From Mytilus galloprovincialis (taxonomy: Eukaryota > Mollusca > Bivalvia > Mytilida > Mytilidae), in contig NC_134838.1 in NCBI RefSeq assembly GCF_965363235.1, positions 997,001-1,061,000 of the forward strand: a stretch of 64,000 nt of DNA, given 5' to 3'. How positions within the stretch are numbered: the stretch's first letter is position 1; each line of letters opens with the position of its first letter. The position numbers were made by a program, and so were the translations under genes. Shown here one piece after another: positions 3,201-49,163 of this stretch. A model generated the notes under the pieces. It was given only the letters and a program-made list of their open reading frames with translations, did no database searches and had not been told where the DNA came from.

Positions 3201-6200
3201 ATAATGAAAAATTGCCTTACAAGAGTCTTACAAAGCTCTAATTAATGGAACATTGCCTTACAAAGTTCTTATTAAAGGAGGTCTAGTTCTTGACTACAAG
3301 TAAGAATCCAAAGATTTTTAAATTTTTTTTCTCAATTTTTAAAGTAATTTTTATGCCCATATTAGTAGATGACTGTTTTTTTTGTTAAATAGGGTGTCTT
3401 CCTCTATCTTGGATTTGGAAATACCAGAAAACAAGTAGCTATAGGAAGATGTGGTGTGAGTGCCAATGAGACAACTCTCCATACAAATAACAATTTAAAA
3501 AGTAAACCATTATAGGTTAAAGTACAGCCTTCAACATGGAGCCTTGGCTCACACCGAACAACAAGCTATAAAGGGCCCCAAAATTACTAGTGTAAAACCA
3601 TTCAAACGGGAAAACCAACGGTCTAATCTATATAAACAAAACGAGAAACGAGAAACACGTATATATTACATAAACAAACGACAACTACTGTACATCAGAT
3701 TCCTGACTTAGGACAGGTGCAAACATTTGCAGCGGGATTAAACGTTTTAATGGATCCAAACCTTCTCCCTTTTTCTGAAACAATAGCATAACATCACAAC
3801 AAAGAAAAACATACGATAAAATATCAATTGGCAGACTTAACTCAATCAAAAAACGTATGATTAAACAATGAACGAATAAATTTGATCTGCGATATCTGAA
3901 TACAAATGCACAGTTAATTAAATATTAGAGACAAACATTCATGACCAAAAAGCTAACAAACAAATTCAAACACAGGACATGACTGAGAAATATTTAACCA
4001 ATCAATGTTCACTTTAGAAAAAAAACGTTTTTTTTAAGGTCTAGATCTTTAATAGAATGTGCAAATTTTTAGAGAAGTAGATAATTCATGTGTAAGAAAT
4101 TCCACTTCTACATAGAAAATGACATGTTTTATCATATTTATGATTGTATTTTACAAAAAACCAGAAATGTTTTATTTGAACAATTTTTTTCCAACTTTGC
4201 CACATAAGGGGAGGCAACTCAAATGCAAGGGCAGATAATTCAGATTAAGGTATTTTTACAATAGAATGTGTTAGGAATTTCTCTATTTTATTATGTAACA
4301 AGAAAACAGGTCCGGTGACCCCATTTTTTCTTTTTCTTAACTGAAAGCATACTATTAAAGCTATCTTCTCATATGTTATCTCAAAATTCTATGGTGTAGT
4401 TTACGCTTTATTGCAGAAAATTGGGGTTTCCATGCATAATCTATACAAAATTTGACAATTTTGAACACCGTGTAGCATGAAAAAAAGCCCGGTGACCCAT
4501 TCTTTTTATTACTTTTTTTTAAAAAGCATAATATAAACTTCATTTTGGCAAATTATTAAAAAAATCTATGGATTATAATTTAGACACCCCATCTACCTTA
4601 ACCATGTGCAATTCCTATGATTAAACAATTTGCAATGGTGGCTTGAAATATGAATATTGTTTGTATGAGCTGAAAAAAAGGGAAAATGATAGGTTTATTT
4701 CATTGAACAGGAACCCAAAGACAAAAAAAATCCAGACACCAAAAGGTTATATTCTCTTAATGGGCCCTTGAATTTGGAAAATAAAAAAATATTGTAAAAT
4801 ATTGTATATTCCATACAAATTTAATTTTGTTTTAATAACCAATAAGAAAAGTACATAATTACTTTCAGGTGAAAGCCCACATAGCTGAAATGCAGAAGTT
4901 ATTAGAGTTTCCTGATAAACTACAGTATGAGCACGAATCTGAAAGAGACTTAGCAAGATTACAAAGAAAAGCAAAGTAGGTATAGTTAGGTTTGGGTAAT
5001 AAAAGAATACAGATAAATTGGACATGAGACAATACTCTAGTAAAATACAAATAATATCCAAGATTACAAAGAAAAGCAAAGTAGGTTAAATTATGTTGTC
5101 TTTTGCAGTCAAGTAAAAATCATATAGATTGGGACTAGAGATCTGCAATACCATAAACTTGAATTATTTACATAAACATTAATTATTTACAAGTCATACA
5201 ATGTTTTCAATTAAACTTATAATATAAATGGTTTGGAAATTATCAGTTCCTAGTTATAGAAAAATAATGTAAAGTGAAATACAAAAATCAATACTATTAG
5301 ATTGTCACATGCTGTGAAATGTTTTTATTGCAATATTCACAGAGAAAACAAAATTTCAATTGATGTTAAACATTATTGAATCATTGTAAAAATCTAATTC
5401 CTTTAAATAAAAAACAAAGATGAGACAAGAAAACAGACAACCAGTTCTGTTATTGTTTACAGTTTTAACAAAGCAGCCTTCAATTCAAAGTAGCTTCTGA
5501 AATGAAGTGGCCAACTGGCGACCAGACATGAAAAATTTAGTGGCCAACTCAAAATTTCAGTGGCCAGGATATAATTTCAGGCCGCCTACATTTTTTTTCT
5601 AGCTAAACAACCCTTGCTGAATAAAAATACAATTTTTTTGTTCTGTGTTTTTTTTAATATTGTTGAGTGTAGAAAATAGTTTGTATAAATCAATCGTAAA
5701 AAAAACCACATGTTTATTTAATTTTATGCTTTATATAACAATCTGTGATGTTTAGTGGTAGTCTGAAGCCCAGTCAAAAAAAAATCTCATCAGACTTTTG
5801 CAGTAGCAAGCGGACATCTGAAATCGTTGTAGAAATTGTAGCCAGTAGTTTATTAAATCTATGTCGTAGACTATGAGAACAAGTTACAAAATTGTTGCCA
5901 ACCTTGTTTCATCTGTTTACTGACGAAATCATGAAGGAGGCTCGACCATGTGCTTTTAATAAACAATCCACAAATGCTAATGGGTTTCTTACTAATGGCA
6001 CATAATAGTCAAAATTGTGACTGAGAGTGAACCCAATAATTTTGCGCCCTCTAGCAGCCTATAGCCTATAGAGGTTAATTTAGCAATCAGAGATTAGACA
6101 GAGATCGGCGGAATATAAAGACTGACATTATTCGGGTTAGACTGAGAGCAAAATAAGAAAATAGATGGATCTGTGCCAATTTAAGTCAATGCTTACAAAT

Positions 6201-24921: not shown

Positions 24922-27900
24922 TTATAAACTAGCTCTAACAGATTCCATTTTCTGAAGTAGTTCCTCCCGTTTGGTATTATTAGCTTTCTCCTGGTCAATA
25001 TAAGCTTGTCTTGTCATCTTGTTGTTGACAAGTTTCTCAGAATATTGTATAGCAACAGCTATAAGATCTTTGTGTTGGGTGTCTAGACGTTGTAGCTCAC
25101 CAACCTGCAAAATAATTACAAGTATTTAACTCAGAAATAAAACTTGTTTACAATAGTGCATGCAAGATCTTTTACTGATTTATTAAGGAATGACTGTAAT
25201 ATTTTTTCAGTCTATGAAGAAATAACATAAAAAATGTGGTACACACTGAATAACACGCGTAGCGGGTTATTTAATAGTGTGCACCACATTTTTTGTGTTA
25301 CACTATTTCGAATAGACTAACAAAATATTACATTTATTTCTGATAATTTAATTCTAAATTCCATTTTAAACCGGCGTAAATCATGAAAAAACATTGGTGA
25401 CGGCATGGTCACATGACAAAATTGTGTCTATGATACGATAAACAAGAGGCTGTCACAAGGACAGCAAACCGGATTTATTAACATTTATTTGTGTCCTGGC
25501 AATATCACAAGAACCATAACTGATGAACGGGGAAAGTGAAAATCGTCAATATCAAATTTGACCTCCATTTTGTCATCAGTATCAACATATTAAAATTTGA
25601 AAAGCTTAGGTTGAATGGTTCATGAGTAAATGCAACAACATGAATGGAAATGCCATTTTTTTATCTTTCAAGAACCATTAGGCCTAAAAAAAAAAGATAA
25701 GTGTTTCCGGTAACATCATTTTGAAAAATAGGGTCGGTAGGTCGGAATTCTTTTTTTTTTTTTTTTTTTTTTTTTTTTGACATCATAAATGAAATCCGGA
25801 AAATTATCATGGTTTTTCCAAGTCCGGATCCGTAATTAGTTTCAAAAACGGGAAGTGTGCCATTTGCAATGTTTTTGAAGCACCTGCTGTGCAAATTTCT
25901 TGGATTTTAACCTATTTGGAATACCTTTTGACATTAATAAAATGTTTTACTGGCTTTCTATGCAAGTAGAAGCAAGAGAGAAAAAATATTATGTCATCTA
26001 TCAGAAGACTGTGTCAAAAACGGGGTCGGTTGATACAATTTTTTTTTTTTTTTTTTTTGAAGATCCAATAAAAAAGTTAGGGTCGGGGCTAAAAAACAGG
26101 GTCGGTCGGGTTACCGGAAACATCGATCTTTTTTTTCTAGGCCTTACTCCTGAACGGTAAAAGACATTATTGAACTTGACCTCCATTTTGTCATCAGTAA
26201 CAACATATTAAAATTTAAAAAGCTTTGGTTGAACAGTTCATGAGTAAATGCACAGACACAACTGGAAATGCCATTTTTCAATCTTTCAAGAACCATAACT
26301 ACTGAACAGTAAAAATCAAAATCGTCATTATTGAACTTGACCTCCATTTTGTCATTAGTAACAACATATTAAAATTTGGAAAGCTTTGGTTGAACAGTTC
26401 ATGAGTAAATGCACGGACACGACTGGAAACGCCATTTTTCAATCTTTCAAGAACCATAACTACTGAACAGTAAAAATCAAAATCGTCATTATTGAACTTG
26501 ACCTCCATTTTGTCATTAGTAACAACATATTAAAATTTGGAAAGCTTTGGTTGAACAGTTCATGAGTAAATGCACGGACACGACTGGAAACGCCATTTTT
26601 CAATCTTTCAAGAACCATAACTACTGAACAGTAAAAATCAAAATCGTCATTATTGAACTTGACCTCCATTTTGTCATTAGTAACAACATATTAAAATTTG
26701 AAAAGCTTTGGTTGAACAGTTCATGAGTAAATGTAAGGACACGACTGGAAACGCCATTTTTCAATCTTTCAAGAACCATAACTACTAAACGGTAAAAGTC
26801 ATAATTGTCATTGTTGAACTTGACCTTCATTCTGTTTTCAGTAACAACATATTAAAATTTTAAAAGCTTTGGTTGAACGGTTCATGAGTTATTGCAAGGA
26901 CAACATTTGGTTGCTGCCCGCCCGCCCACCGTACATCCCCAAATCAATAAACGACATTTTTGTCACAAAAATCAGGTTAACAAAAGGACGTCAGCCAATC
27001 AGAAGACACATTTCATCCCAAATTAAATTATTCTAAAATGTTGATAAATATGTTAATCTATGTAATATGTGTTTTATTCATTGTTGAAAGTCATTCATTT
27101 ATCTATAGTTGTAACCTTTCATGTCATTTGGTCTGTGGAGGAGAGTTATCACATTGACAATCTTATTACTTATTTATATTATCTATGCCTATTTATCATA
27201 AAATCTTCCCATCATTTATCACTTTATTAAACAATGTATGTTTGAGATAAAAGGAAGCATTTAGTATAAATAAGTATTATATAAAGACATGATGAAACAA
27301 CAATAAGTATTATAAATAGAAACACATGATGAAACATGTCATAATGGTCTCTTAAGTGATTTCAAACTGCCTTAATTGCTACTAAGACTTAGACCTTATA
27401 TAAGAGAAAGAAAAGATGGACATGATGAAAAGTGAGAAAAAAAGTCCTACCAGAAACTTGTAAGTAAAAAATATTCAAAGTATAATATAAATGTCTCTAA
27501 ACCATTCACATAATGATCCATTACCTTTTCAGCAGCATCAGCTCCCTCATTTTTCAGTTGGGATTGTAGACCTTGTATTTGCTGAGTCAGCAGTTTGTAA
27601 TCACCATCAATCTTCTTCCTGCTGTTCGTGAAGTTAGTAGCATCCTTCGTAGATTTAAACTTGTTTACAGCATCATCGAAACTTTGGTAGAGAGCACTTC
27701 TCTTGTCTTGTAGACTCTGAACTTCCTCTAGGATACTGGCTACTCTCATCTTACTCTCTTTGGCTTCATCCTGTTAACATGTGTAATGTAATTTGTCAAC
27801 TAATCATACATGTCATAAAATTTTTCGATAAATCATGTGTAATGTTAATCATCATATAAATTGTTGATGATAAAAGTTAATACATCAATACTTAAAATTC

Positions 27901-30900: not shown

Positions 30901-33900
30901 TGCATCTTGTGTCCTTTGATAATCATATCTAGAGAAAGGTCCATTGAGATCAGCTCCAGAATGTCTCATCTGTATGTTCTCCTCTACAGCAATATTTCCC
31001 CAGTGAGATAATTCAATCACACGTTCTAAATGTGTGACAGTCAAAAATGGATTATTGTTCTCTGCATGAACTCTCAATTCAGCCTATAAAACATAAACAA
31101 ATTTAAATTTACTACTAATAAAAGTAATACTTATTGATCTTACATAACAGTTATTTTAAATTCCTACTCATAACTTATTTTCTGAAAACCTACTTTCACT
31201 ATCTTTTTGTATAAGTATATATTTATCTGCTGGGTATGTGCATCTTTTAAGTTTTATTATTAGTTACATGTATGAAATTGTAATCTTTCTGGTTTAAATT
31301 CTATGCTTTAAAAAAAGAACTTTTATGTAAATTGCATACTTTTATTTAGTGTGACTAAAGTTTATCTTTCTCTTTAAATATCCTTTTAATTATATACAGT
31401 TGAGATCTCACAAACATGTTTAACCCCGCCGCATTTTTGCGCCTGTCCCAAGTCAGGAGCCTCTGGCCTTTGTTAGTCTTGTATTATTTTAATTTTAGTT
31501 TCTTGTGTACAATTTGGAAATTAGTATGGCGTTCATTATCACTGGACTAGTATATATTTGTTTAGGGGCCAGCTGAAGGACGCCTCCGGGTGCGGGAAGT
31601 TCTCGCTACATTGAAGACCTGTTGGTGACCCTCTGCTGTTGTTTTTTATTTGGTCGGGTTGTTGTCTCTTTGACACATTCCCCATTTCCATTCTCAATTT
31701 TATTAACAATTGATAATAAATCTTACATATCTTGCTGTACATCATTTTGATACAAATGCAAGGTGTCTGACATCATGCACCAATACCATGCCCCATTTGC
31801 ACAATCAAATTTCAATATTGAGGGAACACCAAAATTGGGTTCAACATCCAAATCCAGCATATATATGTTTCAAAAAGTTCAAATCACAATGAATAGAAGT
31901 AAAGTTTAAAAGTTGATGTCATCACAACTTCAGGGTAAACTCTTACATGTATATGTTCAACCAACTTTTTAATCTCTATCTATGCGATGAAAAAAACAGA
32001 AGGACAGCTGCAAACACTTTTAAAAAACATAATGCCCCTATATGATTGTAAGCTGGCACAAAAACCAGATGTTTCTCTCCTACAAACCTCTGTAAATGGC
32101 TCCCTGGCTTCATAAGGTCCATATGTTACAGTTTTTTCACTCTGTGAGACTGGTTTTGGTGATTTGCTGTAGGATTCAATAGATGATGAAGCTAAGTTAA
32201 CAGTGGTGGTCTGACTGGTTATCTTGTATGGTGAATACAGGAATATATTGCCAGTAAACACTACCAATTGTTTCTCAGACTGTTTAATCTTAGTTGGGAA
32301 TGGTGACAGAGCATGAGCATAAACACTGTCTACATCTACTTGTAATGATTTCCCTGCTGCAAGGCTAGACGGCAAGTTGATTCTCCAAAACTCTTTGTCA
32401 CTGAAATGAAGCAATAACAGGCATGATAAATAAAAGGTATGCACAGCCAATAGACCCTTCTAGATTAGCACATCAAAAGAAAAGAAACTTCACCTTGTCC
32501 TGTGCATTTCACAGTCAGAAGACGAAAAATTTAATTGTTGAAAATGAAAAATTTGTTCTTTGCAATTTTTTAAAATGATGCATGCAAAAAACTTTTCATA
32601 ATAGCGGAAGCAATTTTAGCTATAATAAGGTCATACAGTGTACATCTGACAAGGCAAACTGGTAGATGATCTATCAAGATTTGACAAATAAGTTTACAAG
32701 AGGGAGGGTGTCAATTTGTTCTTCAATTACAGTCTTCAAAACCTTTACCAGACAGTCCTTTTTCTTACAAGTGCCAGCAAAAAAAGAAATTTAAGTTGTA
32801 AACAAGAGACCTAAATTTTTCTCATTTACAGCTCTTCTATAAAAGCATGCAAAGCAAAATTTTGATCAACTTGCTTGTTATGTTTGCTTGGATGTTTAAT
32901 TTGCAAACAATAGGTTAGTGGAGTTTCAATATATACTGGGATTTGATTGGACATGAATTGAAGTTAATGTTTAATGCCCAATCACATTACAGTATATAGT
33001 AAACAGACTACCTACCTGTAGTTTACGAACATTCAAACAAACATAGCAAGCAAGTTGATCAATGGTTTGCTATGCATCCTTTTATAGAAGAACTGTAACT
33101 GATATCCCAAGAAATATAAATGCCTAAATGGTTTGAAGCTACTTACCCATGACCATCAACAGCAGTCTTGGAAACTGTCAGCTTATTGTCATCATCTTTA
33201 ATCTGCAAGAAGAGGTGAAAAAAAATAATTAAGTATTGTAAACTATCACTGTCGACTGGGTTGCATGTATATCCCTGTTTCAGAATCTGATGGATTCTGA
33301 GTTTTAGGGGCTTATTAATGAGATTACCTCTTGTATATACTTCAAAGTTAAAATTTTACATAGAACTACGAGGCGAAATATACCAGAGGGACATTTAAAC
33401 TCATAGATTGAAAATAAACCAAAAACTGGGGGTGATCTCAGGTGCTCTGGAAGGGCACCTGTTGTGTTGCTCAAGAGTCATGTTATGAAAAACCTGGGAA
33501 GTAGTAATATATTTTGGTAGGTCACATTCCTGAAAAGGGAAGTTGATCGATGATTGTAGTCACGACATAAGGAACTTGTAGATATCATCTGTGACAGACA
33601 TTCCATAACGGTCAACGAATAACTTTTTCACTTCCATCTATCTGTTACATGTATGTATGTACAATGTAAGCATATCAAAATACAATCATAAGTCACACAA
33701 CAAGAGGATGAAAACACAGGACGTACAGATTGCAATTGACATACCATTAGGCAAACTGGTTTCTATTTCTTCAGGACCATTAGAGTTTGGCGAAGGCTGC
33801 GACACAGGGTTTTCATGGTTATGTTGCCGCAACTTTTATGTCCCAGGAGGATGTCAAATACATCATTATTTTTACACTGGAATACTTAACATTTATCATT

Positions 33901-34316
33901 ATGGTATTGTAAAGAGTAAGCTAATTATGAATCGGTATGTTATTATTCTGGTGTTTGCTACACTTATTTGTCGTTTACACTGTGGCTCTATGTGAAATAT
34001 AGGCTAGCGACCAGTAGTCTTTCATTTAAAATGAATTTGGGATTAGTGCATGACATTACAAACTTACCGAAGCTCCAATGAATGACAGATATTTTTGCAA
34101 GGATGGTTCGATCGCATATAGAAACGATTTGATGCCTGACTTTCCAGTATTTTCAACTGTCAGTGATGACGCCGACTTCACTAAATGAGATGATATGTCA
34201 ACCTTCCTTTCAACCTTAGTAATCACGACGGATGGATTGATGGTGTCCTTGTTGACATTGCATCGAACAATTAAGGCAAAGCCTAACAGAGTCAGATACA
34301 AAAATGGACGATTCAT
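24922..34316 (-). CDS. RPN1: Ribophorin I, oligosaccharyltransferase subunit 1
   Basis: Ten exons, read on the minus strand: 34316-34068, 33202-33147, 32400-32088, 31083-30877, 30496-30304, 30003-29904, 29665-29527, 28822-28703, 27770-27525, 25104-24922. All borders are GT/AG and in phase; total 601 residues plus TAA, close to the vertebrate length of about 607. A signal peptide starts [19 protein letters not shown]. The lumenal part contains [75 protein letters not shown] and [15 protein letters not shown], all near-identical to family sequence. One membrane helix lies at about residues 434-451 in exon 8, followed by a cytosolic coiled-coil-like tail (exons 9-10). It is a subunit of the ER complex that transfers glycans to asparagine. 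The start is the only Met ahead of a signal peptide. An LTR retrotransposon lies 172 bp upstream. Introns carry several MITEs. Confidence 0.97.
25196..25332. mobile_element. Foldback MITE in RPN1 intron 9
   Basis: A 137-bp near-palindrome: 'tgtaatattttttcagtcta' at the left pairs with 'tagactaacaaaatattaca' at the right. The stem continues through 'aaaaaatgtggtacacact' against 'agtgtgcaccacatttttt', with a loop around 'acgcgtagcggg'. Arms are about 60 bp. No gene content. An RNA from either strand would fold strongly. Confidence 0.8.
25508..26935. repeat. 161-bp tandem array, about six units, split by a MITE
   Basis: Units share 'caagaaccataactactgaa', 'cttgacctccattttgtcat', 'acaacatattaaaatt' and 'gaacagttcatgagtaaatg'. 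The best-preserved units (around 26289, 26450, 26611) are almost identical with a 161-bp period; outer units diverge. The array is flanked by 'gctgtcacaaggacagcaaa' and a 'gcccgcccgcccaccgtaca' segment, which may be the ends of the parent element. A 463-bp element sits between units one and two. It lies in RPN1 intron 9. Because 161 is not a multiple of three, the short ORFs in each unit are chance. Confidence 0.9.
25681..26143. mobile_element. Harbinger-like MITE with TTA target duplication
   Basis: Ends are inverted: GGCCTAAAAA at the left and the complement, TTTTTTCTAGGCC, at the right. Further pairing follows: 'gtttccggtaac' against 'gttaccggaaac', with GGGTCGG repeats beside each arm. 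The flanks carry TTA (25678-25680 and 26144-26146). Removing the element restores the 161-bp array unit. A 3-bp TTA/TAA duplication is typical of PIF/Harbinger elements. Long T runs lie inside. No transposase. Confidence 0.85.
31385..31705 (+). repeat. Dispersed repeat copy in RPN1 intron 3
   Basis: Closely matches 49490-49803 in the same order: 'catgtttaaccccgccgc', 'gcgcctgtcccaagtcagga', 'gggccagctgaagga', 'cgctacattgaagacc', 'cattccccatttcc'. At 49490 this block is the tail of a Penelope-like element, so this copy is probably a 5'-truncated relative. Confidence 0.8.
32829..33105. mobile_element. 277-bp palindromic MITE in RPN1 intron 2
   Basis: The left arm starts 'ttacagctcttctataaaag' and the right arm ends 'ttttatagaagaactgtaa'. 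Pairing continues through 'gatcaacttgcttg' / 'caagcaagttgatc' and, nearer the centre, 'atatactgggatttgattgg' / 'ccaatcacattacagtatat'. Arms are about 130 bp. No ORF and no clear target duplication. Confidence 0.85.
33360..33900. repeat. Dispersed repeat in RPN1 intron 1
   Basis: Contains 'accagagggacatttaaact', 'gatctcaggtgctctggaag', 'ttccataacggtcaacgaat' and 'cttcaggaccattagagttt'. I recall these as parts of repeats common in mussels. Boundaries are uncertain and no terminal repeats were found. Confidence 0.45.
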
Positions 34317-34488
34317 ATTGCAGATTCAAAAGATGGAAGCTGATAAAAAATATCGTCTTCTATTCTATTTAGCCGGCATAGAGCCCTCGGAAATACGTGT
34401 ACTGTCTTCCGGTTTCACGTCTTCTTCGTATTGTGTATTCCTCCTTGTTTATAGGAGCACATGTATCGATCAATCTCATTCATTATAG
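34317..34488 (-). promoter_or_regulatory. RPN1 5' UTR and remaining proximal promoter
   Basis: The 172 bp between the RPN1 start codon and the LTR element are all that remains of the native upstream sequence on this side; the former upstream sequence resumes at 41244. No TATA box or clear binding site was recognised on the minus strand, so the transcription start is unknown. The region includes 'ccggcatagagccctcggaa' and is less AT-rich than its surroundings. Confidence 0.5.
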
Positions 34489-35087
34489 TGTAGCAGACAG
34501 AGTTATTAGTTAATTTTTAGCTCCCTTTGGTAAAACTCTAAATTTCATATTTGATGTATTTCATTGTTAATTAATTTACATGAAGCTTATTAAGGATATA
34601 TTTGTTAAATAACATAGCTTTTGCTATTTTAATTCATTGGTTAAAGATATTTATTTAAATTGTAAAGTTTAATATTTGCATCGTTGCAAATTCTTTGGTT
34701 ACCTTCTGTGAGAAATTTATATATTTTATATAACTAGTTTTAGATTCTTATTTTGAATGCTCTGAGGACTGACATTTAGTCCAACCAAGGAAAGCCAGGC
34801 TTTCCAAACAAGTATCCATTAAGTGAGTGCATTTGCTACATGCCTCCATAGTACGAGTTAATTAGAAGTCATTGAATGCTCCATTTCTACACTTTTGGCT
34901 TTACTTAATAAAAGTTGTAATTTGTTTAATAAATTATATATTGTTTTCAGTTTTTGGTTTTCATTTACTTAGATATATTATAGCGCATCACTTTTGGCAT
35001 CAGTTGTTTTCCGCACACATCAGTTTACAAACTAGAATTAGCTGTGGTCCGCATCCCCGAATCTTAGGCAGAATTGTTCCTGCTACA
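34489..35087 (+). repeat. 5' LTR
   Basis: TG..CA ends with an 8-bp terminal inversion (TGTAGCAG / CTGCTACA). It contains a TATA-like stretch near 34720 and AATAAA at about 34907, so U3 and polyadenylation functions are plausible. The LTR reads away from RPN1, which starts at 34316 on the other strand. Confidence 0.95.
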
Positions 35088-35292
35088 TTTGGTAGTGCGG
35101 GTGGGGTGCGGAGTTATCAAGCAACTTTTTTTGGTTTGTAACTGATCAAAATATATAAGAAATGGAGCAGACATTTGAGTCAATGTTTGGTGCCACTGGA
35201 TATGACAGTCCTAATCAGAGCAGTTTTGAATAGTTATTTCTGGGGTATTTTATTTTCATAGTTTGGTTTATTTTGTAAATGTTTATGCAGTT

Positions 35293-36090
35293 ATGATTAG
35301 GTTTGAAGAAAAACCTTGTTTGTTTGATGGTATCAGCATTGATATTACAGATTATTTTGTTCATTTTGAGACAGTTTCTCTTTGGAATCAGTGGAATGAA
35401 TTTGAGATGGCATGTCAGTTGATAATGAATTTGAGAGGTAATGCTCAAACTATTTTACGGTTCTTAAAAAGGCAACAGTTATATGATTATGACTGCTTGA
35501 AAAATGTTCTCATTCAGAGGTTTAATCCTAAGGAGAGGGTGGCATATTTTAAATTTCAATTGCGAGTTTGTAGTTTGAAGGAAAATGAAACAATTTCAGA
35601 ATTTGGTCAGCGTTTCAAGATACTTGCTCATAAGGCTTATCCTGATAATTTTTCAGATTTAGATGAATATTTTACTGACTTATTTACATCATGTTTGAAT
35701 ATTGAGATGGCTAAATTTGTCACTTTTAAGCATCCTAATAGTTTAGATGAGGCTTTATCACTTGCCATTGAATATGAAGCTGTTCATTTTTCTGGTGATT
35801 CAGAGACTATTGATGAGACAGAACGTTTAGATTGTTGTAAAACACTTCATAACAGTTTTGAAACTTTAATTAGTATATTGAGGAGGCGATTGAAATCACG
35901 TAGGAAACATAAACCTAAGAGATGTTTTAAATGTCACCAGTCAGGTCATGTCAGGTCTAAGTGTCCAAATATGTCTATCAAAGTTCATGCTATAGTTGAC
36001 AGATCTGCAGATAGTCAAGTAAAGCTCTCGGAAATAGGTGGAAAGTTGAACAATGATTATTGTAGTTCAGATTATGTTACCTTTGTTTAA
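35293..36090 (+). CDS. Gag-like protein with CCHC knuckle (LTR element)
   Basis: A 265-codon open frame. The central region (QLIMNLRGNAQTILRFL, RFNPKERVAYFKFQLRV, ISEFGQRFKILAHKAYP) has the pattern of the Ty3/Gypsy Gag capsid family. A basic stretch precedes a zinc knuckle C-x2-C-x4-H-x4-C (CFKCHQSGHVRSKC) near the C-terminus. In this family Gag packages element RNA. The frame is followed by non-coding sequence rather than pol. The start is the first Met of the frame. Confidence 0.85.
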   Translation: MIRFEEKPCLFDGISIDITDYFVHFETVSLWNQWNEFEMACQLIMNLRGNAQTILRFLKRQQLYDYDCLKNVLIQRFNPKERVAYFKFQLRVCSLKENETISEFGQRFKILAHKAYPDNFSDLDEYFTDLFTSCLNIEMAKFVTFKHPNSLDEALSLAIEYEAVHFSGDSETIDETERLDCCKTLHNSFETLISILRRRLKSRRKHKPKRCFKCHQSGHVRSKCPNMSIKVHAIVDRSADSQVKLSEIGGKLNNDYCSSDYVTFV

Positions 36091-37130
36091 TGTTTGTTTT
36101 TACATTGTGGTGTGTGTATATATGCAGATTTATACATTAGTTTATTTCAATTTACTCATAGTTGTCATGCGTCTCAGTTTGGACTGTTTGGTTTTTCTTT
36201 TTCAAAGGGAGGGATGTTGCACATCCCAACTTGTTTTATTTTTCATTTTCAATACTGGCTTGAATTATGGCTGATCTTCTGTGTAGTTTAAAGTGTAGAC
36301 TGTTAGCTAGTATTAAGTAGGAATTGGTTTGTTTTATGAGTTGTTGCTCGTTTGTCTGGATTGTAATCTCTAGCTAAATATTCAGTATTTAGGGAGTTTA
36401 TGAGGGTCCGACTTGTTGACTTTTGTCATTGCCAAGAATCTGTCCGGTTTAAGAGAGATAACTGAATTTGATAACAATTATTTGTATCGACAAGGACGAT
36501 AATCCATCCTCGCTCCACATGGGGTTACTTGATAATTTGACATGTGCGATAAGACGCACAATTAAGGGGTTGAACACCCGCTGGTCTGTAAAGATAACTT
36601 CAGTGAAAACCAATACCAGATGTTATCGCTAAAATAATTTGGATTCATGTTTTCTGTATTTTGGTGCAATTTGTAAAATTAATTGAAGACCGGAGTTAGT
36701 GAATACATAAGTCCTAGTTGAAACATTAAAACGGCGCAAGATGTTTGACCCAAATTGGTAAATGAAAAATGCATATAAATAAATTAGATTTTCTTATTCA
36801 AAATGGATTGATCATCAAACTGACTGAAATGTATTTGAAATTTTAGTTCAACTAACACATTTGTCCGAAAGGTCGCTGTCTTACGATTCTTTTATTTATT
36901 ATTTTTATGTGTGGATATATATATAACAGGTACCTCGAGAATTCGGAATGTCTGTCGTTTAATTCAATTTTAAAATTCATTGACAGTTAATAACTATTAA
37001 ATTTACACTCACTTTGAGTGAGGATAACAGCACAATTCCGCGAGTTCTGATTTGTTTTTCGTAAATTCTTTTGTTATAAATGAAGTCGTTAGTTTTATCA
37101 ATTGAATAATTCCATATTTTTTTTATAGTT

Positions 37131-37420
37131 GGGGCCTTTATATCAGACTATACGTACGGTATGTTTTTTTCCTCAATGTTGAAGACCGTACGCTTGTCCG
37201 CTATAGTTGGATACGACCACCTACATCAAGTCAGGAATATGACAGTTGTTACATGTATCCATTCGTTTGATGTGTTTTATCATTTGATATTGCCATTTGA
37301 TTACGGACTTTTCGTTTTGAATTTTCCTCGGAGTTCAATATTTTTGTGATTTTACTTTTTTTCGTTTGAACTTTGGTGGACAGTTGTCTTATTGGCAATC
37401 ATATCACATTTTTCTTATTT
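37131..37420 (+). repeat. Dispersed repeat inside the LTR element
   Basis: Contains 'cctcaatgttgaagaccgta' and 'ttggtggacagttgtcttat', followed by 'tggcaatcatatcaca'. It matches, inverted, 52425-52575. A second fragment at 37770-37890, after a run of 15 or so C, carries 'gtcgggttgttgtctctt' and 'cccgttttcattctcaattc' from the tail of the same family. Confidence 0.65.
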
Positions 37421-39834
37421 ACATATGTATGTTCGATATGTACTGGTAGATAACTTATCTTCAAATCGGTACTTTAGATCTTTTGTATTTTGTAGATAAG
37501 TTTCATGGCCAATGTACAGGGAAGCATTTTCCTACTAATTTTAACACAGTCTTGTGTTGTGCTTTTAAGTCAGGAACAAATTACTTGTAATTATGAGATA
37601 GTCGTTTCTTGCTATCCACGAGATAAAATATGACACAGAAATTTTGTTAGTCTTATGTGTGTGTGTGGTTTTTTTCAATTTTGGTTTATTTATATGTTAC
37701 GGAGTTTTGTGTGACGTTCTTTTCGCTAAACTATATATAGTTATAACATTATTGTATTGAATACCCCCCCCCCCCCCCTTTTGCGTTTAAGACCCATCGG
37801 TGACCATAGGTTGTTTTTCTGCTCTTTTGTCGGGTTGTTGTCTCTTTTTATAACACATTTCCCGTTTTCATTCTCAATTCTATTGAAGTTAATAAGCTAC
37901 TATACGATATGAGTTTAGCTAATTGATAAAAGCCATACAGTAACTTATACGGTTGCACGAAGATAGTGAGAAAGCGTCATTTCAAAAGCAGATCCTACAT
38001 TTTGTTTGTATCTACGTTATGACAACGAACTTAAATCATGTCTGAAAATAAAATCTCGGAAATGTCATATTTATTGACCCTTTCCTGTTTTTAATAAAAT
38101 AATACAAGCTTCAAGCATCGTTTCCACCATACATCCACCTCGAATATCCACAGGTATATAGCCTGAAGCTGACATGTTAATTGTTATACAAGTACCTGTT
38201 CAAAGCTAATAATTTTTATCGTTTTGTGAAGAAATTATTGACTTTTTATTTAATAATGTTTCGGTTCAATGAATTTTAACTCAGTTGAAGAGCTTGGGAT
38301 AAAATAAAATGACAAGGCAATTCTATAAACAGCAGTTTATTTTCATTTTATACAAGAATACTGTTGTATTTAAATATATATGTTAGTTTCGATTATTTTA
38401 GTCATCAACAAGTTTCTTTTTGACGGCGAATGTAAATTTATATCATCATGGTAAAACGTGTCTTAAAAGGTGCTAACTTTCTAATGTATTGTGCGCACAC
38501 ATTATTCGTATATTTAGTTTTTACGAAATTAATAACAGAAACTTGGTTTTGAAGAAAAATCTATAATATCTGATTTTAACTTGTCGTATCAAGTGGTCGA
38601 ATTCAGTGGTGTATTCTTTATGCTGTTTTATGCACTGTTAAAGTGCGACGAAATGGAATTGTTCTCCTTTATGATTGTGTATTCAAATTATGTGTCAGAA
38701 AATAGCCTTAAAAAGGTTGTAAAAATATCGTTACGAAAAAGAGCCAAAAGGACCAGTTAAAATGCAGCTAGTCACTGGGAGAGTTGTCTCATTGACAATC
38801 TGCAATCATACAGCTACTGCTGAACTTTTTTTTTTTTTTTACCAAATATGAATAGAAACTATTTAATCCCATTAATTAAAAAGGGATTGTGTATTGATAA
38901 AACACTTAGTTGAACGTGCATCGATCTGCATCTATTTGATACAATGCGTTAACTTTTAGATTAATTTACGATCATTGCATTCTCATGCTTTATTTAATAT
39001 CGGTTATAAGCACGTGATAACAAACACAAACAAAAACTTTGAATATATAATTAACTTCAATAATAAAAACGTGAATTTCATATTATTTATTGTTTTGTAA
39101 TTCCTTCAGCCCTAAACCAAGTTAATACAAAACGTCGTTTCCACTAAATATAACATGAATTATTATGTCTCAGCATGACTGTATAAACAAGATTGTGTAA
39201 CATGCTTCTATCTGTTTACACAAACAATGTATCCTGTTGTCAAAAAGAAATTGATAGAATAAAAACTTAAAATCGCCTACTTTTAAATCAAATTTGGTGC
39301 AAGGAGACAATAACCAATTTAAAAATAAACTACACTACATTAAACTATAACTTTTCATCTTTCTCTTGGTCACAACAGCTAAGGAATGTCATCAGTAAAA
39401 GTATTTTATTTATTTTTTCAAAGCTGACCACTTTCCCTAAAAATGACATTTTCTGTAAGAATAACGGCAAATGTAAGCCATTTGACATCACTGTATGAAA
39501 AATCTAAATTTGTTGCATGAAGTTTAAACATTATTTTGAAATAGTTTATATCATTAAAAAGAAGACACATTAAGGATTATGGTGATCACAACAGCTAAGA
39601 AAAGAACTGAGAAGAAAATTGAATATCGTCTGTTAAAGAATATTTTCCATATAACTTCTATATAACGATTGTCTCCATGTAGGGTATCTGAATTCACGCA
39701 TGCGCAATGTCGACCGGACTGATTCTTGACAATGCATGGCAGAAACCAATAGAGTGAACGTAAAGCTTGAAGTTAGGAACACTTCAAGCATATACAGATG
39801 GATCTGATCCATTATTTGGTACCATGTAAAAATT

Positions 39835-40045
39835 GGGCATCGTCCATTTTATTTTGAGAACCTTGCTATTACATTTGGGCATCGTCCATTTTATTTTGAG
39901 AACCTTGCTATTACATTTGGGCTTCGTCCATTTTATTTTGTGAACCTTGCTATTACATTTGGGCATCGTCCATTTTATTTTGAGAACCTTGCTATAAAGC
40001 TGGGCATCTTCCAACTTTATTTTGAGACCCTTGCAATCAGATGGA
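39835..40045. repeat. 42-bp tandem array inside the LTR element, about five copies
   Basis: The unit starts 'gggcatcgtccattttattt' and recurs at 39835, 39877, 39919, 39961 and 40003, the last copy diverging. Because 42 is a multiple of three, short frames stay open across it on both strands. It is flanked by the related phrases 'cagatggatctgatccat' and 'cagatggacccgatccat'. Confidence 0.9.
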
Positions 40046-40644
40046 CCCGATCCATCTTCGGTGGCACAACGTCTGTGTTACCGTTATCAACAACGTTGGA
40101 TTGCAGAAATAGAACCCGGTGGTACACGTCAAATGTGCCACTGTGAGATCAACACTGGTGGACATTGCCTGGTAAAACTTTTCATGTTAGATTTTAACAT
40201 TAGCTATGCCGTTACCGTATATGCCGTACCACTGATTCTGAAGCCTACTTGTCAAGAAGACCTCAAGTCGCGTCCGCCAAAAGATGTACCTGATTCCGAT
40301 GTGTGTTTGTGTATGCGTTAAACAGTGACATTTATTAAAAAGGGATATTATGTATTTGAAAGACATTTAATCTGACGACGTTAGTTATCAAATGTTATTC
40401 CATATAGTATATGGCATATACATTTGTTTTCGAAGGGAGGAGGAGGGTAGCAGATTAGTGAAGTGGTCTCCATTGAACAGATTGAACTGTCTCAGAATTT
40501 GGATTTGACTTATATATATTTGATTTAATGTTTACATGACTGTTGAAACTTGCGTTTTCAGTGCAGCAGATACATCAATTTGATAGATATTTTAGTGTGA
40601 AGACCTTATTGATGAAATTTTTCGTTTGTCTTAGGGGGGAGGAA

Positions 40645-41243
40645 TGTAGCAGACAGAGTTATTAGTTAATTTTTAGCTCCCTTTGGTAAAACTCTAAATT
40701 TCATATTTGATGTATTTCATTGTTAATTAATTTACATGAAGCTTATTAAGGATATATTTGTTAAATAACATAGCTTTTGCTATTTTAATTCATTGGTTAA
40801 AGATATTTATTTAAATTGTAAAGTTTAATATTTGCATCGTTGCAAATTCTTTGGTTACCTTCTGGGAGAAATTTATATATTTTATATAACTAGTTTTAGA
40901 TTCTTATTTTGAATGCTCTGAGGACTGACATTCAGTCCAACCAAGGAAAGCCAGGCTTTCCAAACAAGTATCCATTAAGTGAGTGCATTTGCTACATGCC
41001 TCCATAGTACGAGTTAATTAGAAGTCATTGAATGCTCCATTTCTACACTTTTGGCTTTACTTAATAAAAGTTGTACTTTGTTGAATAAATTATATATTGT
41101 TTTCAGTTTTTGGTTTTCATTTACTTAGATATATTATAGCGCATCACTTTTGGCATCAGTTGTTTTCCGCACACATCAGTTTACAAACTAGAATTAGCTG
41201 TGGTCCGCATCCCCGAATCTTAGGCAGAATTGTTCCTGCTACA
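40645..41243 (+). repeat. 3' LTR
   Basis: The same 599 bp as the 5' LTR with about four differences; preceded directly by the polypurine tract. Downstream sequence resumes with the ATAG duplication. Confidence 0.95.
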
Positions 41244-42437
41244 ATAGCAACAAGACGCCACAGAAAGAAAACTATATTCAAGTTCCATAATATATAGGTA
41301 TACAGTAACATTGACGGAAAGATAGACCTGTATGAGTCTGGAAAAATTCAGATGAAATCACACTTTAATATTGAATTCGTTATATTTGCGGTTTCACTAA
41401 TTAGCGACAACAAGAATTTTAGCGACAAGAAGCGACAACAAGAATTATTTTAGCGACAACAAGCGACAAGAAACTATTTAGCGACAAGAAAACATTTTTT
41501 TTAATTAAGATTAATTATTGCAATAAATATTAAAAGAATATGCAAAAGAAAATAATTTTAGCGACAAGAAAGTTAAAATTGATAGAAAAAAATGAAACAT
41601 TATTTACATAATATTTTATCATCTATTTTGAATAACAGCCAGTATTACGTTTAATTATTGTATTATGAGATTACTTTTCCTTGTGTTTTAGAACATATTA
41701 TTTATCTTATAATTTGTTTTTTAAAACTCTTTTCGTGCAATATATATTAAGCTCGCAAAATGAATTATTTGTGCATCATTGTCCTGAAAATATTGACACA
41801 AATTGTGAAATACAAAGAACTGAAATCAAACAGGAGGAAAAGAAAATTGAAATGTGAATGTTTTCATCTTTTTATTTGTTTATTGCCTCATTAAACGATA
41901 TTTATCATGTTTATGTATATTGATTGAAGATGAAAGGAAATTAATGACAATCTTGGGTTTTCAACAGGTGTTCACTATTTACAATGATTGTATATTCTGG
42001 CGCGTGCAATTGTATAGTCTGACGCGTGTACAAAGTTGAAGGTGTTAATTGGATGTTATTGTAGCAATAAAACAGGGGGCACGCGACTCGTTAATCTCAT
42101 TTGATGTTCCACATGTTTGCTTATCAAAATGGGACCACCATGTACAAAATGTATAAATATTATGTTAGATAGGAATGTACATATTACTAAATAATGACTA
42201 AAAATAATTTAAATTTTTTTTTTTTTTTTTAAATATATGGACCCCAAGGTAGAGCCACGTGTTCTTTAAAACTGAAGGATTTTTATATATGTAAGATTAA
42301 ATTCAGTGTTCCTGAAGCAGAATTAAGAAATCTCTATTTACGAATAAGTTATATTTTTTTGTTATCACAAAACTATATGTATTTGCTCTTTCATTCCATC
42401 TATTGAAATAAACATTAAATATTTATGAAATTTATTA
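41244..42437. other. Former upstream flank of RPN1; no gene seen
   Basis: After the LTR element the native sequence resumes. Around 41400-41570 is a simple repeat built from 'agcgacaacaag' and 'agcgacaagaa'. The rest is AT-rich, with a T run near 42215, and no coding or transposon signal that I can recognise. Distal RPN1 promoter elements, if any, would now lie here, more than 6.7 kb from the gene. Confidence 0.5.
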
Positions 42438-42629: not shown

Positions 42630-45600
42630 TTACAGCTGTAGTCTCCGAAGCTGCTGCTTGAAGCATTCCAGAGATGTAGCTAGGAAGGCTTCAGGAGGCA
42701 GACTGTTCCAGTCGGTGATGGTGCGTGCATGGTATATAGCTGTATTTGTAGGCATCTGTGGAGGTACTGATCTGAGTAAATTTTTCTGGATGGTATTGTC
42801 TAGTTGAGGTAGATGGTCTTCTCACGTACATGTATGATGGTATGTTGACTACCGCCTTTCCATGTGTGGCTTTGTAGAACATGCTCAGTCTACTAGATTT
42901 CCGTCTAGATTCTAGCGTTTGCCATTCTAGGGTTGTCATGATGTTTGTTACTGTCCCTGGTTACCGACTGTATGTTGATGTCGAAAATCTGGCAGCTCTT
43001 CTTTGGACCATTTCTAGTGAGTCAATGTGGTGTTTTCGATATGGGTCCCAAACTGTGGAGGCGTACTCAAGATGTGGGCGCACTAGCGATGTATAGGCCT
43101 GCGCTTTGATGTCTTGTGGACACTTCCAGATGTTGCGTCTTAGGAATCCTAGTACTCTGTTGGATTTTGTGATGACTTTTTTGATGTGAGGATCCCAACT
43201 GAGATCTTCTGATAATTCGACTCCGAGGTATGGATATTGGTGGACTGTGGATAGTTGTTGTCCCATCATTTCATACTCTTCTATTGTTCGGTTTTTCTTT
43301 CTCGATACTCTAAGTGTGAAGCATTTAGCTGGATGGAATGTCATCTGCCATCTCTCCGCCCATTTGGTTAGTTCCGTCAGATCGTGTTGAAGCTGTAAAC
43401 TGTCCTCACTACCCTTGATGGGTCTATATAGTAGTGAGTCGTCAGCGAATAGGCGTAGGGTTGATTTTTATGATATTGTTTCTCCCATATATATATATAT
43501 ATATATAAGGAAACAAAGTGGTCCCAATACTGTACCCTGTGGAACTCCTGATCGTACTGGTTTGTTCTCACTGGCTTCTCCATCTAGACATACTCTCTGG
43601 TGTTGCTGAGTGAGCCATGCCGAAATCCATAGTAGGGTGTTGGATGTTATCCCATAGTATGACATTTTCATTAGGAGTCTTTGATGAGGAACTTTATCAA
43701 ACGCTTTCGAGAAATCAAGGATTAGCATGTCTATTTGTCCTCGAATGTCCAGTTCTCTTGCAATTGTTTCGATGGTGTTGATAAGTTGTGTTTCGCATGA
43801 TCGATTACGTCTGAATCCGTGTTGGAAGTCGGATAAGATTTGATGTTCTTCAAGATGTTCCATGATATGCTTATAGATTATGTGTTCCATGACTTTGCAA
43901 CATATTGTGGTTAACGATACAGGGCGGTAGTTCACTGCTTGACTTCTGTCCCCCTTTTTGTAGATGGCTGTGATATTTGATTGTCGCCAGTCTTCTGGAA
44001 CTTCTCCACTGTTATCATGGTTATAGGACTGTTCATAGATTTTTGTGAGGAACGGCGCAATCTCGCAGTGTGCTTTTTTCAGGATTCTTGTTGGTATTTC
44101 ATCTGGACCGTTTGCTTTTGTTGGGTCTAGGAGTTTCAGCTGTTTCTCAACCCCTTCCCATCTGATATGCAACTTCTTGATGTTTGGAGTTATACTGGTT
44201 CCCATATTTGGCATATTTTTTGGTATCCTCTGTCGTGAATACACTATCGTATTGAGTGTTCAATATTTCTGATTTTACTTTGTTGTCGATAACATGCTCT
44301 TCGAGGTTGTTCTGGAGTGGTGATATTCCCATCATGTCTTTTTTCCTTGATTTTATGTATTTCCAGAATTTTTTGCCAAGGTTTGGTTTAGTGTTTTCTT
44401 CGTCCTCTTGATTTAGGATTTGTCGAACGTAGTTGTCGTGGGCCTCGTTCGTTGTCTTCTTAACAAGGTCTCTCATCTGTTTATATTTGTTCCAATTTTT
44501 CTTAGTGTTGTGTTTTTTAGCAGCATTGTATCTTCGCTGTCTGCGTCGTATCAGTCTTTTGATATGTGTGGATATCCATGGCACATGTTGTTTACTACCT
44601 ATGGTTTTCTGTGGGATGAATTCTTTAGTTGCTTGTAGTATGATGTTTTTGAAGTATGTCCATTTTTCTTCTACAGTGTTTTTTTCCATGTTGTTCATTC
44701 TGTTTTCAAAGTTGTCTCGGATGTTTTCTTTGAGTCCATTCATATCGCCCTTTTTAAAGAGGTGCACCATTCTTGGTTTCTTTTTTGATGTTTTGGCTTT
44801 CATATCTATATGTGCCATGACTACCTGGTGGTCACTCATTCCAGGATGTACTTCGATTTTACTTACAAGTCCTGGATTGGTTGTCATGAGTAGGTCTAGT
44901 ATGTTTTGTCCTCTAGCTGGTTCATTTACCATTTGGTTCATGTCGTTGTTATTCGAGATTTCAATAAGCGTTTCATTTAATGCTTTTCCATACTTTGGGT
45001 TAGGATTTACAGTGGTTGTTTGCCAGTTGGTATGTGGGAGGTTAAAATCTCCTCCTAGTATGACATTTGGAAGGTTTTGGCTTATATCCATAATGCAGTT
45101 AATAGATTTTTCAAGTTCTTCAAGTTTTTCTATGTCGCTGCATGGCTGTCTATAGAAGGTACCTATGTATAGGGGTTGTCGTCCCTGGGTGTTGATCTTA
45201 CATCATGCTGTTTCACACTCACTTCCAGTCAATATTTCTGTTGTAAGTGGCGGATTCAGAGGGGGCGTAGAGGGCGTACCCCCCCCTTTTTTTGCTTGGA
45301 CTTTTTTTTTTTTTTTTTGTAAATTGATCAGACTAGACTTCTTGAACTTTGCCATTTCCCATGTATTTAATTTTTAAACGATAATTCTTTACATAAAAAG
45401 ATAGTTTTCGCTGGCACTTTTTACTAATTGTCTAGGTCATATGATTTGCTATGGTGGAGGTGACCAATGTGTCGAAAAAACGTCACTCAGTCATTTTGAA
45501 ATTCAAATTACAGTAACACATTGCTAAGGCTGAGGATGACAATCATGACACCTTCAAAGAGACACAGGATTGAGCAAGAACTGATTGACTTCTATTTCAC

Positions 45601-47555: not shown

Positions 47556-49163
47556 ATGAAGATAGTTGATATTCGAATACAACATTTTAAAGAACATTTT
47601 ACCCTCAACAAAAACTATAAAAACCCTATTTCGCGTATCAAAAATAAACTAACAGAACTAGCCAAGGAATTTGTTTTTGTCCCGGCTGATAAAGCTGCTA
47701 ATAATATCATTATTGTTTGACGTAAATTTTATATAGAGGTTCTGCAAAAGGAAATCACGAATTCACCAACATTCCAACTGACTTCATTTTCAGAAAACGA
47801 CATCTGTAACAAACATAAACTTTTAGCTACTTCTTTACAAGCAGAACCAAACACAATGAAAGTCCCAACTATGTACTGGCTTCCGAAGCTGCACAAAAAA
47901 CCTTACAAATATAGATTTATTTCATCTTCCAGCCATTGTTCAACTACTAAATTGTCTGTTTTACTTACTAGTACACTTGGTACAATAAAAAACCTGATAA
48001 TAAATTGTTCAAATAAGGCCTTTGAAAATAGTGGAATTAATTACTTTTGGAGTGTCAAAAACTCGTTGGAAGTACTTGATAAATTGCATGCATATATTGG
48101 TGATTTTGAATCTGTTCAAAGTTTTGATTTTTCTACCCTATATACCACTTTGCCTCATATTCTTATTAAGAAAAAATTCACATCCCTAATTAACTGGGCA
48201 TTTAAAAAGTCGGAATGCGAGTACATATGTTCAAACTCTTTTAGATCATTTTTTAGTAGCAATAAACAAAAGAACTATGTCAATTGGACATGCTTTGATA
48301 CTATTTATGCACTTGAATTTTTACTTGATAACATTTTTGTTCGCTTTGGAGATTCCGTATATCGTCAAGTTATTGGAATTCCAATGGGGACTAACTGTGC
48401 ACCACTTATTGCGGACCTGTTTTTGTATTGTTATGAGTTACAATTTATGACTAAAATTAGCAAAGACCCATCAAAACAACATTTGATACAAAAATTTAAC
48501 AATACTTTTAGATATTTGGATGATATATTGGCTCTAAATAATGACGACTTCAGTATGTATACTAAAGAAATTTATCCTGTAGAACTTACTTTAAATAAAG
48601 CTAATGATAACAATGACCACTGCCCTTTCCTCGATCTTGATATCTATATCATAAACGGGAAGCTTAATACAAAAATTTATGATAAAAGAGATGATTTTTC
48701 ATTTCCTATTGTTAATTATCCATTTTTAGATGGTGACGTTCCCTTGTCACCATCTTATGGTGTTTATATATCTCAACTTGTACGATTCGCTCGTGTATGT
48801 AACAATGTATTAGATTTTAGCGAGAGAAATTTATGTATTACTGAAAAATTATTACACCAGGGTTTTCGATATCACAAACTGGTCAAAACATTTACTAAAT
48901 TTTATCACCGGTATAAGGAAATAATTCGTAAATATAACTCAACATGCAGACATCTTATACGTTCAGGTATTTCACATCCAAAATTTTATGGAAATATTCT
49001 TTATAAAGCACAAAAATGTCAGTATTCTCCTCAGAAACTAACAAAACCTTTAAATAGACTTATTAAAAGGGGATATAGTTACGATACTGTTGTCAGGTCA
49101 TTAAAGATTGCATATTTTGGCTTTAACATTGATTCACTGATAGGGTCTTTGCATCGGAACTAA
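47556..49163 (+). pseudogene. Penelope-type reverse transcriptase
   Basis: A single frame of about 535 codons, with one break in its N-terminal part. Motifs in order: FVFVPADKAANN, YWLPKLHKKPYKYRFI, SFDFSTLYTTLPH (first catalytic Asp block), GIPMGTNCAPLIADLFL, FRYLDDI (catalytic DD) and CPFLDLDIYI. This pattern, with PKLHK upstream and a YLDD core, is characteristic of Penelope-like elements rather than LINEs or LTR elements. The C-terminal part (RLIKRGYSYDTVVRSL) ends without an endonuclease. Confidence 0.88.

What the first reader, a model, noticed from the sequence alone, without database searches (positions are those of the whole stretch)
34317..41247. Young LTR retrotransposon next to the RPN1 start codon
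The element lies 172 bp upstream of the RPN1 ATG, with its 5' LTR head-to-head with the gene. LTRs differ at about four of 599 positions, so the insertion is recent. It moves the former upstream DNA more than 6.7 kb away. RPN1 is a housekeeping gene, so either its promoter fits within 172 bp or the LTR now contributes, or this is one allele of a polymorphic site.
Basis: partly seen in the sequence, partly recalled or inferred. Interest (0 to 1): 0.75.

Follow-up and report, generated by a model that had tools for sequence, protein, structure and literature searches.

The report
Gag-only mobile element beside RPN1
A stripped-down mobile element that carries one structural gene and none of the enzymes needed to copy itself landed fairly recently next to a housekeeping gene, in what appears to be a mussel genome, and was later split by a second mobile element; nothing here shows that it changes the gene.

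Summary
The element is real: two 599-bp LTRs with 4 differences, a 4-bp target duplication (ATAG), 172 bp upstream of the RPN1 (ribophorin I) ATG. (1) It is composite: 36427-39734 is a separate inverted-repeat transposon that came in later; the LTR element itself is about 3.45 kb. (2) It is gag-only: no pol trace in it, nor in 19 of 20 fetched family loci; the twentieth has pol-like DNA on the opposite strand. Gag is open in 7 of 20 fetched loci plus the window, with mean pairwise dN/dS 0.29. A sister family (gag 46-49% identical) is gag-only in both copies opened. Best reading: a TR-GAG-like non-autonomous family, recently active, borrowing polymerase from an autonomous gypsy element; the helper is unproven. 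LTR divergence (0.67%) is about one fifth of published Mytilus heterozygosity (3.27%), so a segregating insertion is plausible, but no empty allele could be examined. A promoter role for the LTR is unsupported: the displaced DNA was largely transposon, and the 172 bp has weak promoter-like features.

The parts
34068..34316 (-). RPN1 (ribophorin I) first coding exon, signal-peptide-like start; splice donor at 34067-34066 read by eye
   Evidence: translation; PF04597 match of 34074-34316, E 6.7e-06
34317..34488 (-). 172 bp between the RPN1 ATG and the LTR; putative compact promoter / 5' UTR (inferred)
   Evidence: single copy in the assembly (as part of 33600-34488); motifs and CpG
34485..34488 (.). 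target-site duplication ATAG, left copy
   Evidence: 4-bp duplications in 7 of 14 other LTR-pair loci and 14 of 21 LTR loci not beside a fetched gag copy
34489..35087 (+). 5' LTR, 599 bp, ends TGTAGCAG...CTGCTACA; TATA-like 34717-34724 and AATAAA at 34907-34912 and 34928-34933 read by eye
35048..35057 (+). U5 arm of a possible U5-leader stem; the other arm is 35103-35112
   Evidence: z -1.74, weak; aligned in 17 copies
35090..35106 (+). primer-binding-site-like stretch starting TGG; primer tRNA not identified
   Evidence: pattern search of the genome gave no signal over its control
35293..36090 (+). gag ORF, 265 codons, CCHC knuckle (by eye)
   Evidence: PF03732 E 4.7e-08 over cut-off
36427..39734 (+). 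nested transposon, 3308 bp, 21-bp imperfect inverted termini (36427-36447 and 39714-39734), no convincing target duplication, longest frame 79 aa
39833..40034 (+). 42-bp tandem array (4.8 copies) in the 3' non-coding part; copy number appears to vary among copies
   Evidence: broken alignments over it in other copies
40633..40644 (+). polypurine tract before the 3' LTR
   Evidence: similar tract in L036/L037 and L042
40645..41243 (+). 3' LTR, 599 bp
41244..41247 (.). target-site duplication ATAG, right copy

Best explanation
A gag-only, non-autonomous Ty3/gypsy-type LTR retrotransposon of about 3.45 kb inserted with a 4-bp duplication 172 bp upstream of RPN1; a 3.3-kb non-autonomous inverted-repeat transposon later inserted inside it. 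Shown: anatomy, duplication, open and conserved gag, no pol trace in this element, other young copies of the family. Inferred: the element's own Gag packages its RNA (which would explain why gag stays under selection), while protease, reverse transcriptase and integrase come in trans from an autonomous gypsy element of the same genome. Also inferred: RPN1 keeps its promoter in the 172 bp, so the insertion is close to neutral and probably still segregating.
For: LTR pair and ATAG. Other copies run from 36426 straight to 39735: 11 of 20 exactly, 4 more within a few bases. Only long frame is gag. Pol pieces find nothing in the window element at E up to 1. Gag open in 7 of 20 loci plus the window; mean pairwise dN/dS 0.29 over 28 pairs. 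Young pairs elsewhere: L016 0.17%, L024 0.62%, L020 0.68%, L017 1.0%. A sister family is gag-only in both copies opened. Related gypsy elements with gag and pol exist in the genome. Upstream DNA from 41385 to 42260 is itself repeat, 39 other places at 92-97%.
Against: The helper of the window family is not identified: no shared leader or primer site with the three gag-pol elements opened, and no pol element was recognised among 40 of 119 candidates sharing the leader. LTR exchange between loci occurs in this family (L018, L019), so LTR dating can mislead. Seven of 14 LTR-pair loci showed no 4-bp duplication with the boundaries I used. Host species is inferred. Nothing about transcription or translation was tested.
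Confidence: 0.8

Rival explanations
1. The LTR now supplies or modifies the RPN1 promoter, for example by bidirectional transcription from the LTR.
For: Only 172 bp separate the LTR from the ATG. LTRs contain promoters in general (established knowledge).
Against: The LTR reads away from RPN1. The 172 bp holds ACCGGAAG and GACGTGA (0.2% and 1.4% of 5000 shuffles, motifs chosen after looking) and CpG observed/expected 1.27, reached by 205 of 3192 windows. The displaced DNA was largely transposon.
Confidence: 0.08
2. An ordinary autonomous gypsy element whose pol was deleted or destroyed in this copy, for example by the nested insertion.
For: The nested insert sits where pol would be expected, after gag.
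Against: Other copies are continuous at that site and also lack pol; 19 of 20 fetched family loci have no pol match and the twentieth has it on the opposite strand.
Confidence: 0.07
3. The insertion is older than it looks: intra-element gene conversion made the two LTRs alike.
For: L018 and L019 have LTRs that match other loci better than each other, so exchange between LTRs happens in the family.
Against: Gag is open over 265 codons with no stop. The window LTR pair is closer (0.67%) than either is to any other of the 45 LTRs compared (3.2-3.3%); intra-element conversion would give the same pattern, so this does not exclude it.
Confidence: 0.1
4. Assembly artefact: the element is misplaced beside RPN1.
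For: Only one assembly is at hand and the RPN1 side occurs once.
Against: Both flanks carry ATAG just outside the element, as expected for insertion of this family; the two LTRs differ at 4 sites, so they were not collapsed.
Confidence: 0.02

Closest known systems
TR-GAG retrotransposons of plants (Chaparro et al. 2015, seen only in a reference list; Arabidopsis AT5TE33540 in PMC8704663, passages)
   Same: Two LTRs, a single ORF for Gag, no pol, evidence of recent movement, presumed use of another element's enzymes
   Different: Here an animal (inferred Mytilus) and a Ty3/gypsy-type gag; AT5TE33540 is Copia with a highly similar putative autonomous partner, while no close partner was found here
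Autonomous Ty3/gypsy elements of the same genome (L040, L041, L042)
   Same: Homologous Gag capsid region, 43-46% identical over about 160 residues; L042 has a similar polypurine tract and LTR start and shares the leader 13-mer TGGTGCCGTGACC with the sister family L036/L037
   Different: They carry pol: protease, RT, RNase H and integrase by Pfam in L042, homologous frames in L040 and L041 (pol of L040 is in three frames). The window family has another leader sequence
biv-TRIM of bivalves (PMC6934838, passages)
   Same: Non-autonomous LTR element in bivalves including Mytilus galloprovincialis, no clear PBS, no partner found
   Different: TRIMs are under 1 kb with 100-250 bp repeats and a short internal domain; this family has 599-bp LTRs and a gag ORF

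Membership tests
LTR retrotransposon | two direct LTRs with TG...CA ends, short target duplication, polypurine tract | tested here: met
LTR retrotransposon | primer-binding site complementary to a host tRNA | tested here: inconclusive
   TGG-starting stretch after the LTR, but no tRNA found; pattern search 75 matches against 140 of its control
Ty3/gypsy superfamily | gypsy-type gag and pol order | tested here: inconclusive
   gag matches Retrotrans_gag over cut-off, Ty3_capsid below cut-off, and gypsy gag-pol elements of the genome; there is no pol to classify
TR-GAG (structural class, described in plants) | LTRs plus a single gag ORF, no pol | tested here: met
TR-GAG (structural class, described in plants) | transposes with enzymes of a partner element | not testable with these tools
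   recent copies show movement; no helper identified for this family
TRIM / biv-TRIM | under 1 kb, 100-250 bp repeats, short internal domain | tested here: not met
   599-bp LTRs and a gag ORF; definition from passages

The most novel reading that the evidence does not exclude
This genome carries a long-lived clade of gag-only LTR elements: at least two families whose Gags are only 46-49% identical, both with young insertions, neither with pol in any copy opened, and (in the window's family) gag kept under purifying selection. Supplying one's own Gag in cis while borrowing Pol in trans would then be a stable way of life in an animal, not a short-lived deletion product, with young copies mostly segregating in the population.
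Probability: 0.5. Interest if true: 0.6.

Novelty: new member of a known kind. Interest (0 to 1): 0.42.

Why it matters
The passages I saw on gag-only LTR elements concern plants, with a first direct demonstration of movement reported in 2021 (PMC8704663). Two such families in what appears to be a bivalve, with pol-bearing relatives in the same genome, would let one ask how such parasites persist and why they keep gag. For RPN1 the site is a natural experiment (filled against empty allele), but no effect is shown.

Tried and rejected
Single 6.7-kb element: rejected; the middle 3.3 kb belongs to another repeat with the same end points at five other loci examined.

Pol lost through the nested insertion: rejected for the copies opened.

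Primer tRNA by pattern search: no signal; 75 matches, several of them the family's own copies, against 140 for the reversed control. The U5-leader stem is only weakly better than shuffles (z -1.74, 9 of 200 shuffles fold at least as well).

Helper by shared leader: 40 of 119 candidates scored, all matching either the family's leader or its LTR end only; I did not open the ones not already fetched. A search with the 5' part of L042 returned only places 90-100% like L042 among 40 of 71 candidates scored.

Second haplotype of the RPN1 side: one match only, so no empty allele could be shown.

Literature: no animal element described as TR-GAG or gag-only LTR retrotransposon was seen in the listings (one search returned no paper). 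Passages only were seen of PMC6934838, PMC11304980, PMC11183127, PMC8704663, PMC10294476. The library is partial; absence there is weak.

Gag tree: 6 gag-only rows separate from 3 gag-pol rows (100/100), but the tool warns of long branches and near-copies; supportive only.

LTR pair distances of L021, L023 and L029 (0.26-0.48) come from LTRs with different deletions, badly aligned; I do not use them as ages. In one search, LTR matches shorter than about 480 bp were dropped, so L024's second LTR was not compared.

Full report
Observation. The LTRs lie at 34489-35087 and 40645-41243, 599 bp each, and differ at four sites (5' LTR 34709, 34777, 34920, 34927). ATAG flanks both ends. The minus-strand gene is RPN1, ribophorin I: five of the five pieces tested match PF04597, E 6.7e-06 to 1.5e-28, and one matches OST subunit 1 in 6s7o, E 2.9e-22. 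Its ATG is 172 bp from the LTR.

Host. The window is G000:C1:997001-1061000 of a 1.385-Gb assembly of 331 contigs. The family Myticin (PF10690; known from Mytilus by recall) has 17 matches here and none in 14 control genomes. Assembly size is like published Mytilus assemblies of 1.3-1.4 Gb (table passage of PMC11304980). I infer a Mytilus species; no tool named it.

It is composite. Searches with pieces of the element put 35088-36100 and 40060-40644 in one family and the stretch from 36427 to 39734 in another (40 of 7392 candidates scored). Of 20 other loci fetched, 11 run exactly from 36426 to 39735 and four within a few bases; two have small losses there (L020, L027); three are uninformative (L028, L030, L035); none shows the insert there. 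Short pieces (78-133 bp) resembling the insert occur elsewhere at L022, L023 and L029. The insert has 21-bp termini alike at 19 positions, with the same end points at five other loci, and no convincing target duplication at any of these six sites. Its longest frame is 79 aa. It came in after the LTR element, which without it is about 3.45 kb.

It is gag-only. The one long frame is gag, 35293-36090. Pieces of the pol of L042, a gypsy element of the same genome, find nothing at E up to 1 in the window's element, in the whole window, in 19 of the 20 family loci, or in L036 and L037; in L028 they match on the strand opposite to its gag, so another element lies there. Gag is open over its whole length in 7 of the 20 loci plus the window (stops listed as none). 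Among these eight the 28 pairwise dN/dS values average 0.29, range 0.16-0.73; pairs are not independent, and the highest is a close pair with 8 changes. So gag was kept by selection along the lineages that moved, though no polymerase goes with it.

A second gag-only family. L036 and L037 have gags 46-47% identical to the window's over the whole alignment, 49% over 230 residues. Their LTR pairs are 263-980 / 2900-3617 (99.2% alike) and 270-965 / 3634-4333 (96.4%). They have a zinc knuckle (L036) and no pol. One search lists about 20 more places of that family; I opened only these two. L038 and L039, broken relatives of the window family, have no LTR pair by the tool.

Relatives with pol. The next gags, 43-46% identical over about 160 residues among the best, lie in longer frames. 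I opened three: L041 and L042 have long open gag and pol frames; L040 has pol in three frames. Pfam finds protease, RT, RNase H and integrase in L042. In a tree of nine gags the six gag-only rows fall on one side (100/100), with long-branch warnings.

How it likely works. Own Gag packages the RNA (inferred from gag conservation). Pol comes from a gypsy element (inferred). For the sister family, L042-like elements are a candidate helper: TGGTGCCGTGACC follows the LTR in L036 and L037 and lies in the leader of L042; that this fits tRNA-His is recalled. The window family has another leader start, TGGTAGTGCGGG, kept with single changes in some of 17 copies aligned, and its primer and helper were not found. 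U5 and leader can pair around it (weak); the outer stem keeps pairing where U5 differs in L026, L031 and L032 (by eye).

Age. LTR divergence is 4/599, 0.67%; a Poisson range of about 1 to 10 changes gives 0.2-1.7%. Published heterozygosity of M. galloprovincialis is 3.27%, with 8.79% of the genome hemizygous deletions (PMC11183127, passages). If the host is comparable, the insertion is about one fifth as old as a typical allele pair, so it may well be polymorphic. Among 45 LTRs compared, the nearest other copy to the window's LTRs is 3.2-3.3% away; for L016, L017 and L020 (pairs 0.17-1.0%) it is 4.7-5.5% away. So sources of young copies were not seen, but only 40 of 871 LTR candidates were scored. 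Against simple dating, L018 and L019 have LTRs that match other loci better than each other. Solo LTRs look common: 14 of 21 LTR loci not beside a fetched gag copy have a 4-bp duplication, two of them with the same flanks.

RPN1. The DNA moved away, from 41248, becomes a repeat at 41385-42260 with 39 other places at 92-97% among 40 scored of 723, followed by a LINE-like stretch. The 172 bp contains ACCGGAAG (0.2% of shuffles), GACGTGA (1.4%) and TATAAA (24%), chosen after looking. CpG observed/expected is 1.27, reached by 205 of 3192 windows, 53 of them with at least 8 CpG. This favours a compact promoter there but does not show it. LTR promoter use is untested.

Verdict. A real, fairly young insertion of a gag-only LTR element with a nested transposon. 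On present evidence its nearness to RPN1 is incidental. The family is the interesting part: a TR-GAG-like element in an animal.

Noticed in passing
window 36427-39734: Nested 3.3-kb repeat with CATTG...CAATG inverted termini and no convincing target duplication at six sites; superfamily not identified.
   Followed up: partly
window 41385-42260: Another abundant repeat starting with AGCGACAA tandem units; elsewhere its start is matched again on the other strand some hundreds of bases on, as in an inverted-repeat element.
   Followed up: partly
window 42691-45202, minus strand: LINE-like stretch: endonuclease match (PF14529) over cut-off, RT match (PF00078) below cut-off; its RT frame is interrupted.
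   Followed up: no
window 47721-49163, plus strand: Open frame of 480 aa with no Pfam match at 0.01; by eye and recall it resembles a Penelope-like reverse transcriptase.
   Followed up: no
window 27447-27773, minus strand: REX1B-like exon (PF14966, E 3.6e-07) beyond the RPN1 exons.
   Followed up: no
L059 (C6:33465236-33465929) and L061 (C1:86245081-86245776): LTRs with identical flanks and duplication (ACAG) on two chromosomes, 2.4% apart: one insertion duplicated with its surroundings.
   Followed up: no
L018 and L019: Elements with matching 4-bp duplications whose two LTRs are 7-8% apart and each closer to other loci, suggesting exchange between loci.
   Followed up: partly
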